The notes beneath the pieces were generated by a model. It saw only the letters and a program-made list of their open reading frames with translations, was not told the origin of the DNA and ran no database searches. From NCBI GenBank assembly GCA_030647435.1, contig JAUSJX010000107.1, positions 1 to 64,000 of the forward strand: a stretch of 64,000 nucleotides of DNA. The letters run 5' to 3'. Numbering within the stretch: the first letter of the stretch is position 1; the number at the start of each line of letters is the position of its first letter. Shown in pieces: positions 53,398-58,170 of the stretch. Origin of the DNA: Candidatus Rokuibacteriota bacterium (GTDB lineage: Bacteria > Methylomirabilota > Methylomirabilia > Rokubacteriales > CSP1-6). The position numbers were made by a program, and so were the translations under genes.

Positions 53398-53473
53398 GGG
53401 CAGGTAGCTCAGTTGGTAGAGCACAGGACTGAAAATCCTGGTGTCGGCGGTTCAATCCCGTCCCTGCCCACCA
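53398..53473 (+). tRNA. tRNA-Phe (GAA)
   Basis: A 76-nt cloverleaf: acceptor GGGCAGG pairs with CCTGCCC, D-arm with AGCTCAGTTGGTAGAGC, anticodon stem CAGGA/TCCTG with loop CTGAAAA giving anticodon GAA, and T-arm with GGTTCAATCC. The CCA end is encoded. The 3' 49 bases are repeated at 57972-58020, marking this as an integration site. Confidence 0.95.
53425..53473 (+). other. attL: 49-bp 3' end of tRNA-Phe shared with attR
   Basis: Identical by eye to 57972-58020, from the anticodon stem through CCA. Tyrosine integrases commonly recombine in the anticodon or T-arm of tRNA genes, so this is the attachment site that restores an intact tRNA at the left end. Confidence 0.8.
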
Positions 53474-53571
53474 TTCTTTTCAACAGGTTGCCCGCTTCGA
53501 AATTCTCCCTGGATTGAGTTTGTGCCCAGATTTGTGCCCAAGTCAGGCACACTCCAGCACATTCCAGCTAT
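53452..53571 (-). pseudogene. 3' remnant of a tyrosine-recombinase-like gene overlapping the tRNA end (copy 1)
   Basis: On the minus strand a frame ends with LGTNLGTNS and then NGGQGRD, terminating in the tRNA 3' half. Copy 3 (57999-58150) ends the same way. This arrangement, a gene tail running into the att site, is typical of integrases that use tRNA sites; no catalytic part of the gene remains. The identification as integrase is by position, not by motif. Confidence 0.5.
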
Positions 53572-53711
53572 GCATCCCGAACCCTAGAGGATGCGTTCAA
53601 TGCCGATCGCAGCCCGGGCCGACGGCGGCTTCACCTTGTGAACTTCGTCAAGGAAGAATACTCTGCCTACGAGGTCGCAGGTGACCTTCGTCGCGAGCCT
53701 GGGCACGCCGA
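53572..53711. other. Non-coding island start
   Basis: About 140 bases between the integrase remnant and the end of the kinase gene. No gene or clear regulatory site recognised. Confidence 0.5.
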
Positions 53712-55838
53712 TCAACCCCTATGCGATGACGTGAGCGCGCTCTCGACGAAGGAATCGGGCGTCAAGACGCCGGCCACCAGGTTTTGCAGGTCGACCGGAG
53801 CGAACGGCTTCGACAGGACGAAGCGCACGCCGGAGCGCAGCGTCTCTTCCGGGTCCAGCCTGTCCCCCCAGCCCGTGACGAACCCGAGAGGAATCCGAGG
53901 GAAGCGGCGACGGCATACGGCAGCCACATCCCAGCCCGACATTCCCGGCATGGAGACGTCGGTCAGGATGACGTCCACTCCCGCGCCGTCGCAGCAGGCC
54001 AATCCCTCTTCCCCGCTGGCCGCCTCGAGGACGGTGTGGCCAAAGGATGTCAGCATGTCCCGGAGCACGCATCGAATCTCAAGCTCGTCGTCGATGACCA
54101 GCACGCGGGCCGTGCGGACGGGCCGCAGCACCGACGCCGGAGCCTCTGCCGCCGGTTCCTCTGCCGCCGGTTCCTCCTTGCTGACCGGCAGGCGGACCAC
54201 GAAGGTGCTGCCCACGCCCAGGCTGCTTTCGATGTCGATCGTGCCCCCGTGCCGCTTGACGATGCCCCAGGAGACCGACAGGCCGAGCCCGGTTCCACGG
54301 GAGCCCTTGGTCGTGAAGAATGGCTCCAGCACCCGCCACCGAATCTCGTCCGACATGCCGCAGCCCGTGTCCTGCGCGGCTATCGTCACTGTGTCCATGT
54401 CGCTCGAGACCCGGAAGATGAACCGGCCTCCCCCGGGCATGGCGTCGAGCCCGTTGATCAGCAGGTTCATGAACACCTCGCGCAGCTCCGCGGAGATCCC
54501 CGCTACGGGAGGAACCGGTCGGCCTTCGATCAGCACCTCGTAGACGATATTGCGGCTCTGCGCTTCGTCCTTCCAGCGTCCCCGCGTCAGCTCGATGACG
54601 TCCCGCAACAGTTCCGGAACCTCCACTCGCCCGGCAGGGCGCGTTTGGCGCGTCCGCGTGAACTCCTGAATCCGCCGAATGGTCTGGGCCCCGTCCCAGG
54701 CTGCCTGTCGAATGACCTTGACATTCCGGCAGATCTCCGGCTCCTGGACTTTGGCGAGCAAGACCTCCGCGCGTCCGACCACCACGGCCAGGAGATTGTT
54801 GAAGTCATGCGCGACGCCCGCCGCCATCTCGCCGAGCGCGCTCAGGCGCTCCGTCTGCACCAGTTGCTGCTGCTGTGTCTCGATCTCCTGCAGGGCGACT
54901 CGAAGCTCCTCGAGCAGCTGCGCGTTCTGGATCGCCACCCCCGCCTGAGAGGCCAGGGAAGCGGCGAGGTTGCGATAGCGCTCCGGGAAGGGCATGACCT
55001 CGTCATGCAGGGCTTCCGGCCGCGCCAGAGGCCGTCCGGGAACGCGCTTGCAATTGATCAGCTGCAGCACCCCGATGATCTCGCCGGCCGGAGTCTTCAT
55101 CGGCACCACGAGCATCGACGTCGTCCGGTAGCCTATCCCCGCATCGACCTCGTTATTGATGCGGTAGGGGGATTTCGGAGGCAGGGCGTACGCGTCGTCG
55201 ATCCGCAGGATCTCGCCCGACAGCGCAACATAGCCGGCGGCGCTCGTCGAGCTGATCGGCAGTATCCATTCACTGAGCGCCACACGCACGCTGTCGTTCT
55301 GAGCCAGCTTGAATCGCAGATGCTGCCCGCCGTCCGGAGTCTTCTCGACCACGTACAGCGAGCCGGCGTCGCTGCGGGTGATCTCCCGCCCCTTGGTCAG
55401 AATGAGCTCGAGGAGCGCGTCGAGATTGCGCTCGGCCGAAAGGCTTATCCCGATCGTGCTGAGCTCCTCGAGCTGCGTGCTCGTCTCGCGCGTCTCGGCC
55501 CTGACACACGCCTCCTCGCACGCGGCACGGAGCACCGCCGCGAGGGTGGACGGCTGGACCGATGGACTGAGATACGCGTAGCACGGGTGGCCCGGAACCC
55601 CATCGGAGACGCCGTCATTGACCAGCGCCACCACCGGCAATCCCGCGCGCTGCGCGACCGTCATCGCGGCAATGCCCGAATCGCCGCCGGGCAGATGGAC
55701 GACCAGGACGCCGTGCGACCCCGAGCAGGCGACCGGCGACAAGTCGGTGGCGGGCCGAAGCTCGAGATCTTCGGGGAGATGCTCGAGCAGCGCGACGATC
55801 TCCGAACCAGGGACGTACCAGACGGGATGCCGGGACAT
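53712..55838 (-). CDS. Hybrid sensor histidine kinase with GAF sensor and C-terminal receiver
   Basis: 708 residues, no membrane helices, so a cytosolic sensor. Residues about 1-105 resemble a degenerate receiver-like domain (VLVVHLPGGDSGIAAM). A GAF domain follows at about 130-310 (NLDALLELILTKGREITRSD, MLVVPMKTPAGEIIGVLQL), then a coiled coil and a phospho-acceptor helix SALGEMAAGVAHDFNNLLAVV with the H-D-F-N-N box of HisKA group kinases. The ATPase has NGLDAMPGGG (N box), DTGCGM (G1) and GTGLGLSV (G2). A receiver domain ends the protein with VIDDELEIRC and phospho-acceptor Asp in VILTDVSMPGMSG. The FecR-domain gene lies 20 bases upstream on the same strand, so they are cotranscribed cargo of the island. 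Confidence 0.93.
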   Translation of the reverse strand: MSRHPVWYVPGSEIVALLEHLPEDLELRPATDLSPVACSGSHGVLVVHLPGGDSGIAAMTVAQRAGLPVVALVNDGVSDGVPGHPCYAYLSPSVQPSTLAAVLRAACEEACVRAETRETSTQLEELSTIGISLSAERNLDALLELILTKGREITRSDAGSLYVVEKTPDGGQHLRFKLAQNDSVRVALSEWILPISSTSAAGYVALSGEILRIDDAYALPPKSPYRINNEVDAGIGYRTTSMLVVPMKTPAGEIIGVLQLINCKRVPGRPLARPEALHDEVMPFPERYRNLAASLASQAGVAIQNAQLLEELRVALQEIETQQQQLVQTERLSALGEMAAGVAHDFNNLLAVVVGRAEVLLAKVQEPEICRNVKVIRQAAWDGAQTIRRIQEFTRTRQTRPAGRVEVPELLRDVIELTRGRWKDEAQSRNIVYEVLIEGRPVPPVAGISAELREVFMNLLINGLDAMPGGGRFIFRVSSDMDTVTIAAQDTGCGMSDEIRWRVLEPFFTTKGSRGTGLGLSVSWGIVKRHGGTIDIESSLGVGSTFVVRLPVSKEEPAAEEPAAEAPASVLRPVRTARVLVIDDELEIRCVLRDMLTSFGHTVLEAASGEEGLACCDGAGVDVILTDVSMPGMSGWDVAAVCRRRFPRIPLGFVTGWGDRLDPEETLRSGVRFVLSKPFAPVDLQNLVAGVLTPDSFVESALTSSHRG

Positions 55839-55858
55839 TGGACTGCGGGCGCTCGGCC

Positions 55859-57832: not shown

Positions 57833-57844
57833 GAGCCCGACCGG

Positions 57845-57945
57845 TTTGTGCCCAAACTGTGCCCAACTCAGGCGCATTCCTGATCATTCCAGCACACTCC
57901 AGCGCACGACGCCGTCGGGACCCTGCTGTTCAAGATCAAACACTT
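57845..57945 (-). pseudogene. Integrase-like 3' remnant, copy 2
   Basis: Related to copies 1 and 3 through the TTGTGCCCAA repeats and the CTCCAGCGCACG segment, but with small deletions and without an adjoining tRNA end. It indicates an earlier, eroded integration. Confidence 0.45.
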
Positions 57946-57971
57946 CTGCACACTTACACGGACCGGGAGAT

Positions 57972-58020
57972 AGGACTGAAAATCCTGGTGTCGGCGGTTC
58001 AATCCCGTCCCTGCCCACCA
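57972..58020 (+). other. attR: duplicated 3' end of tRNA-Phe
   Basis: The 49 bases match 53425-53473, but the 5' half of the tRNA is replaced by unrelated sequence, so it is not a functional tRNA gene. It marks the right end of the 4.6-kb island. Confidence 0.8.
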
Positions 58021-58170
58021 TTTCTTTCACTCACTTGCCCGTCACCGAATTCTTCCCGGTTTGAGTTTGTGCCCAGATTTGTGCCCAACTCAGGCACACT
58101 CGGGATCACTCCAGCGCACGTCAGTGGTCCAGGCCGTCGCGACCCCTTCCTTCCAGATCCAACTGGAACG
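57999..58170 (-). pseudogene. Integrase-like 3' remnant, copy 3
   Basis: A minus-strand frame with LGTNLGTNS, then a diverged linker and NGGQGRD ending inside the att sequence, parallel to copy 1. The linker differs at many positions, so the two are tails of related but distinct genes. Confidence 0.5.

What the first reader, a model, noticed from the sequence alone, without database searches (positions are those of the whole stretch)
53398..58170. tRNA-Phe integration island with attL/attR and three layers of integrase-like tails
The 49-bp 3' end of tRNA-Phe recurs at 57972-58020. Next to each copy a minus-strand gene tail runs into the att sequence with the same ending (NGGQGRD), and a third eroded tail lies at 57845. 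The integrase body is gone. This suggests repeated integration at one site, each leaving a tail.
Basis: seen in the sequence. Interest (0 to 1): 0.6.

Follow-up and report, generated by a model that had tools for sequence, protein, structure and literature searches.

The report
Tandem integration array at tRNA-Phe
In soil bacteria of the Rokubacteria group, mobile DNA elements have inserted one behind another at the single phenylalanine tRNA gene, and although their integrase genes are mostly gone, the docking sites they used are still readable, so this spot is a long-lived gene-acquisition hotspot.

Summary
The repeat is real. The tRNA-Phe 3' end (53425-53473) recurs exactly at 57972-58020, and twice more on the same contig beyond the window (74123, 78906). 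Each copy is followed by a conserved block. The same 45-bp core recurs, often in tandem, across the family. The left flank of tRNA-Phe is syntenic almost everywhere; the right flank is nearly unique in each genome.

Tyrosine integrases convergent with the tRNA occur in relatives. In a congener an intact 430-aa integrase reads through the tRNA end (...GRDGIEPPTPGFSVLCSTN). So repeated integrase-mediated insertion is well supported.

The 'third tail' at 57845 is reinterpreted. It is a TGTGCCC direct repeat fixed 129 bp left of the core, at the same position at four sites in three genomes, and matches a repeat at +48 on the other side. Other element families have other repeats at similar positions (26 of 41 sites; shuffles 1.4). 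I read these as lambda-like arm sites: the junction is P arm, core, P' arm, not three integrase layers. 'NGGQGRD' is only the tRNA end read backwards.

This is an accretion array of mostly integrase-less (CIME-like) units: known in kind, new in this lineage and in its arm detail.

The parts
53398..53473 (+). tRNA-Phe(GAA), complete; integration target
   Evidence: ARAGORN, Rfam RF00005
53429..53473 (+). core copy 1 (45 bp, within the tRNA): attL of unit 1
53519..53540 (+).
   Evidence: arm function inferred
53712..55838 (-). cargo of unit 1: GAF - HisKA - HATPase - response regulator hybrid kinase (708 aa)
   Evidence: Pfam
55859..56962 (-). cargo of unit 1: FecR-domain protein (367 aa)
   Evidence: Pfam PF04773
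57344..57832 (+). C-terminal part of an ABC_sub_bind substrate-binding protein (profile positions 159-293), truncated gene
   Evidence: Pfam PF04392
57846..57869 (+).
   Evidence: arm function inferred
57976..58020 (+). core copy 2 (exact; 49-base identity from 57972): junction of units 1 and 2
58067..58087 (+).
   Evidence: arm function inferred
58200..58345 (+). dispersed repeat R joined to the tail (promoter-like)
   Evidence: 40 matching places in the genome
58021..64000 (.). unit 2, continues to C107:74122 (16.1 kb): branched-chain amino-acid-type ABC transporter genes and hydantoinase-like genes, all away from the tRNA; no integrase
   Evidence: gene calls, tblastn; gene names from reading the translations

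Best explanation
The region is the tRNA-proximal part of a tandem (accretion) array of integrative elements at the tRNA-Phe gene. Elements with related tyrosine integrases share one 45-bp core, the tRNA-Phe 3' half from the anticodon loop to CCA. Each carried its integrase at the tRNA-proximal end, convergent with the tRNA, so that P' arm and core overlap or abut the integrase 3' end. Each insertion restores the tRNA and leaves a core copy at the far end of the element, so that later elements can stack. Integrase bodies were then lost, leaving CIME-like units that keep core and arms. The block 57846-58087 is a lambda-like P arm - core - P' arm junction between two elements. Shown: the core copies, the arm repeats at fixed positions, integrases at the homologous place in relatives, and a hypervariable right side. 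Inferred: that the arm repeats bind integrase, the order of insertions, and that integrase loss followed insertion.
For: 49-base exact repeat and further copies in tandem. Core always starts in the anticodon loop and ends at CCA. Intact tyrosine integrase (PF00589, E 7.5e-18) reading through the tRNA end at the syntenic site of a congener, and integrases or remnants in the same place and orientation in five other genomes. Upstream gene order conserved, downstream genes nearly all unique. Position-locked direct repeats left (26 of 41 flanks, shuffle mean 1.39, maximum 5; control windows 3 and 2) and right (25 of 75, mean 2.34) of cores. GTGCCC repeat at exactly -129 at four sites in three genomes. 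Same motif in both arms of the one unit with an intact integrase and of unit 1.
Against: No intact integrase with GTGCCC arms was found, so the enzyme for unit 1 is unknown. Units 2 and 3 have different motifs at their two ends, so they are not simple single elements. Flanks within one family are homologous and do not count as independent. Arm binding and mobility are untested. All genomes are metagenome assemblies.
Confidence: 0.82

Rival explanations
1. One reading: three successive integrations, each leaving an integrase C-terminal tail, the third eroded.
For: Elsewhere in the family real integrase C-terminal remnants of 41-53 aa lie directly beside cores, and the intact G022 integrase ends in the tRNA sequence.
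Against: The third block has no core beside it on the expected side; it recurs at exactly -129 bp from cores in other contigs and genomes. No integrase similarity in any of the window's blocks. The reading frame is not conserved.
Confidence: 0.06
2. The units are non-autonomous cassettes that moved without an integrase of their own, served by integrases in trans, rather than decayed autonomous elements.
For: 18 of 22 units have no integrase trace and some hold a single gene in about 1 kb. Six places in this genome and the tRNA site of G024 share one integrase-less end at 84-91% identity.
Against: No resident integrase with GTGCCC arms in the 98% complete genome. Remnants beside cores show that decay does occur. 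Duplication of an already decayed unit also explains the shared ends.
Confidence: 0.2
3. An old tandem duplication of the tRNA 3' end without any insertion.
For: The copies are direct repeats on one strand.
Against: Spacers differ completely between genomes, core boundaries are constant across genera, integrases occur at the site, and arm repeats recur at fixed distances.
Confidence: 0.02

Closest known systems
CIMEs and tandem accretion of ICEs/IMEs at one gene end (review PMC5704250)
   Same: Elements stacked at one target, most of them without integration genes but with both att sites.
   Different: No conjugation or mobilisation genes were looked for systematically here; many units hold only one or two genes; target is tRNA-Phe of Rokubacteria.
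Dehalococcoides ssrA genomic islands (PMC3146451)
   Same: Many tandem islands behind one RNA gene, delimited by copies of its 3' end, some with and some without an integration module.
   Different: Serine recombinases and a 20-bp repeat of ssrA there; tyrosine integrases and a 45-bp tRNA-Phe core with arm repeats here.
Additive flexible genomic islands with repeated tRNA 3' ends (tRNA-Lys, Methylophilaceae, PMC10872708; Alteromonas, PMC4119200)
   Same: Cassette-wise extension of an island at a conserved tRNA, marked by repeats of the tRNA end.
   Different: Arm sites and integrase relation are not described in the passages read; the repeat there is 20 bp.
Lambda-like attP sites of tyrosine integrases at tRNA genes (actinophages, PMC10865867; ICEMlSymR7A, PMC11963761)
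   Same: Core of 30-45 bp from the tRNA 3' half, crossover commonly in the anticodon loop, pairs of short arm-type sites on both sides.
   Different: Here the arms are inferred from repeats only, and persist where the integrase is lost.
Tycheposons (as described in PMC10872708)
   Same: Cargo-carrying elements bordered by tRNA sequence, with a tyrosine recombinase.
   Different: Reported as 4-200 kb, at seven tRNAs in Prochlorococcus; recombinase type was not compared here.

Membership tests
tRNA-anchored integrative island (tyrosine integrase) | Direct repeat of the tRNA 3' end at both ends, intact tRNA at one | tested here: met
   53429-53473 and 57976-58020, complete tRNA at 53398
tRNA-anchored integrative island (tyrosine integrase) | Tyrosine integrase gene in the element | tested here: not met
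   None in units 1-3 of C107; present at the same site in relatives
CIME | Both att sites kept, integration genes absent | tested here: met
   Unit 1 has core copies and arm repeats at both ends and no integrase
CIME | Transfer genes absent | not tested
   None is apparent among the three gene calls of unit 1, but no dedicated search was made
CIME | Can be mobilised in cis by a neighbouring element | not testable with these tools
   Needs experiment
Lambda-like attP | Pairs of arm-type sites flanking the core at fixed distance | tested here: met
   Repeats at about -130/-139 and +36 to +72, far above shuffles
Lambda-like attP | Integrase binds the arm sites with its N-terminal domain | not testable with these tools
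   No binding data
Integron cassette array | intI beside attI, and attC sites | not tested
   Boundaries are tRNA-Phe ends; attC folds and intI were not searched for
Dehalococcoides-type ssrA island | Insertion at ssrA by serine recombinases | tested here: not met
   Target is tRNA-Phe; integrases at the site are PF00589 tyrosine recombinases

The most novel reading that the evidence does not exclude
Rokubacteria keep a tRNA-Phe cassette system: small integrase-less units with full P and P' arms, belonging to several arm families that share one core, are inserted and swapped by integrases supplied in trans, so that the tRNA acts like the entry point of an integron-like array.
Probability: 0.2. 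Interest if true: 0.7.

Novelty: new member of a known kind. Interest (0 to 1): 0.42.

Why it matters
It turns an odd pair of 'gene tails' into a readable att site and shows that a single tRNA gene is a family-wide gene-acquisition hotspot in an uncultured group with large genomes. The set of elements sharing one core but differing in arm repeats is a natural data set for how tyrosine integrases choose their partners, and the arm repeats give a way to pair element ends and to recognise composite or decayed islands when the integrase is gone.

Tried and rejected
Integrase-tail reading of all three blocks: rejected for the third, and not demonstrable for the other two in the window. Intact integrase with GTGCCC arms: not found in this genome by two repeat patterns, nor among the integrases examined in the family; a G015 site at another tRNA has an integrase remnant beside a GTGCCC repeat (L171). 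A GTDB-wide scan for the exact double repeat found nothing (records close to this genome may be left out). The core in viral contigs: none. Phages: no match to 57960-58200. Plasmids: best places cover only 24-26% of the query, about the length of the tRNA end. Empty tRNA-Phe site: none found. A bias of gene orientation inside units was looked at and is weak (46 of 70 genes point away from the tRNA).

Full report
The window is G000:C107:1-64000 of a 5.79-Mb, 176-contig assembly. Named contigs of the same family are Candidatus Rokuibacteriota.

Observation. tRNA-Phe(GAA) lies at 53398-53473 (Rfam tRNA 72.3 bits). Its 3' half recurs exactly at 57972-58020, and a 144-nt block with its right flank is 85% identical between the two copies. 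On the rest of the contig the core recurs at 74123-74167 and 78906-78950, and further copies lie on C35, C131, C32 and at the very end of C166. Contigs that end in or near a core suggest that assemblies break at these repeats, so copies are probably under-counted.

Family-wide picture. Of 57 genomes in the family, 45 hold a match to core plus tail; many of these matches are the tRNA itself. On the stretches fetched, a complete tRNA-Phe occurs at most once, and the other copies are fragments that mostly begin at CTGAAAATCC in the anticodon loop and end at CCACCA. The genes upstream of the tRNA are the same almost everywhere (the aminotransferase family in 35 of the contig stretches, a few of which are one contig fetched twice), whereas the genes downstream are nearly all found in one genome only, and no empty site was seen. 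Between neighbouring cores lie 22 units of 0.7-16.1 kb (median 4.0 kb): one has an intact integrase, three have C-terminal remnants of 41-53 aa beside the core, 18 have none. Several units hold one or two genes, for example a SnoaL-like protein, a glyoxalase, a cyclase, or cupin plus AhpC/TSA.

Integrases. Tyrosine integrases or their remnants lie immediately right of the tRNA, convergent with it, in G016, G052, G028, G008 and G014. In G022, of the same genus and with the same upstream genes, an intact 430-aa integrase (PF00589, E 7.5e-18) ends in GRDGIEPPTPGFSVLCSTN, which is the tRNA 3' end read in reverse.

Arm repeats. The GTGCCC double repeat starts exactly 129 bp left of the core in C107 (57847), C35, G026 (L071) and AR23 (L218), at -128 or -127 in L076, L077 and L221, and 47-51 bp right of most cores that carry it; the reversed control pattern has no hit in 877 kb. 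Other cores have other repeats in similar places: TGTCACC (-129 to -131, +36), ACTCGGAC/ACTCGACC (-140, +72), ACTTGCAC (-138, +68/+70), TGTGTCA (about -137, +72), ACTTTGCC (-139, +70). Testing for any 8-mer repeated at 11-12 bp with at most one mismatch: 26 of 41 left flanks in -150..-91 against a shuffle mean of 1.39 (maximum 5 of 200 shuffles); 3 and 2 of 41 in the two windows nearer the core; 25 of 75 right flanks in +30..+90 against 2.34. Flanks within a family are related by descent, so the effective number is the number of different repeat families, at least six. The patterns were written after seeing the sequences; the 8-mer test was not tied to any motif, though its window was chosen. 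The 16-kb unit with an intact integrase (L078) has the same motif in both arms, as has unit 1 of the window. Published tyrosine-integrase attP sites have pairs of arm-type sites flanking a 30-45 bp tRNA core (PMC10865867) or five arm sites in 283 bp (PMC11963761). I therefore read 57846-58087 as P arm, core, P' arm.

Consequences for the finding. The 'third eroded tail' is the P arm of unit 1. The two other 'tails' are P' arms, which in autonomous relatives overlap or abut the integrase 3' end; in the window they have no integrase similarity. Two further units on the contig have different motifs at their two ends (unit 2: GTGCCC and ACTCGGAC; unit 3: GTGCCC and TGTCACC), so they are probably composites of more than one element. 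The ACTCGGAC arm belongs to the same motif family as the P' arm of the congener's intact integrase.

Integrase-less ancestry. The block right of the core at 58021 continues, at 82-91% identity, for up to 260 bp at 74168, 78951, C35:11673, C131 and C108, and for about 145 bp at the tRNA of G024. Beyond the arm it joins a dispersed repeat (58200-58345) that has 40 matches in the genome. These copies share an end that lacks an integrase, so either integrase-less units moved or a decayed unit was duplicated. I cannot separate these.

Known or new. Stacked islands and CIMEs at one gene end are known (PMC5704250), with striking examples at ssrA in Dehalococcoides (PMC3146451) and at tRNA-Lys in Methylophilaceae (PMC10872708). 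I found no description of this hotspot in Rokubacteria; the genome survey of the phylum reports that transposases and integrases are numerous (PMC5712423). The literature library covers open-licence papers only.

Noticed in passing
window 58200-58345: Dispersed, promoter-like repeat (GTTTGACTTGCCCCGCGCGCTCTGACAGGATC...) with 40 matching places in this genome and relatives' genomes, often upstream of genes.
   Followed up: partly
att geometry: Two spacing classes of arm repeats: about -130 with +36 to +50, and about -139 with +70, i.e. shifted by about one and two helical turns.
   Followed up: partly
L031 (G000:C131:40216-40360): The core copy on C131 is interrupted by an insertion of about 55 bp with inverted-repeat ends (TGCTCGACG...CGTCGAGCA) and a repeat of CTGCCC at both sides, MITE-like; it lies some 500 bp from the tmRNA gene.
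   Followed up: no
window 57344-57832; L032:1300-3314; L080, L085, L092: ABC_sub_bind (PF04392) genes ending in ...TIPQSxLxRADxVIQ recur next to P arms and inside arrays in several genomes.
   Followed up: no
window 52828-52878 and 53229-53349: GC-rich repeats of the type CCCTCTCCCC...GGGGGAGAGGGCAGGGTGAGGGGG upstream of tRNA-Phe.
   Followed up: no
L223 (VBHJ01000084.1), L212 (JAHFEU010000097.1): Contigs binned as Chloroflexi and Nitrospirae carry the same core and arm families, so they are mis-binned or taxonomically mislabelled Rokubacteria, or transferred elements.
   Followed up: no
L171 (G015:C98:214208-214453), L083 (G037:C94 near 5990): Similar integrase remnants with arm-like repeats at other tRNAs (one tRNA-Lys), so other tRNA genes may be hotspots too.
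   Followed up: no
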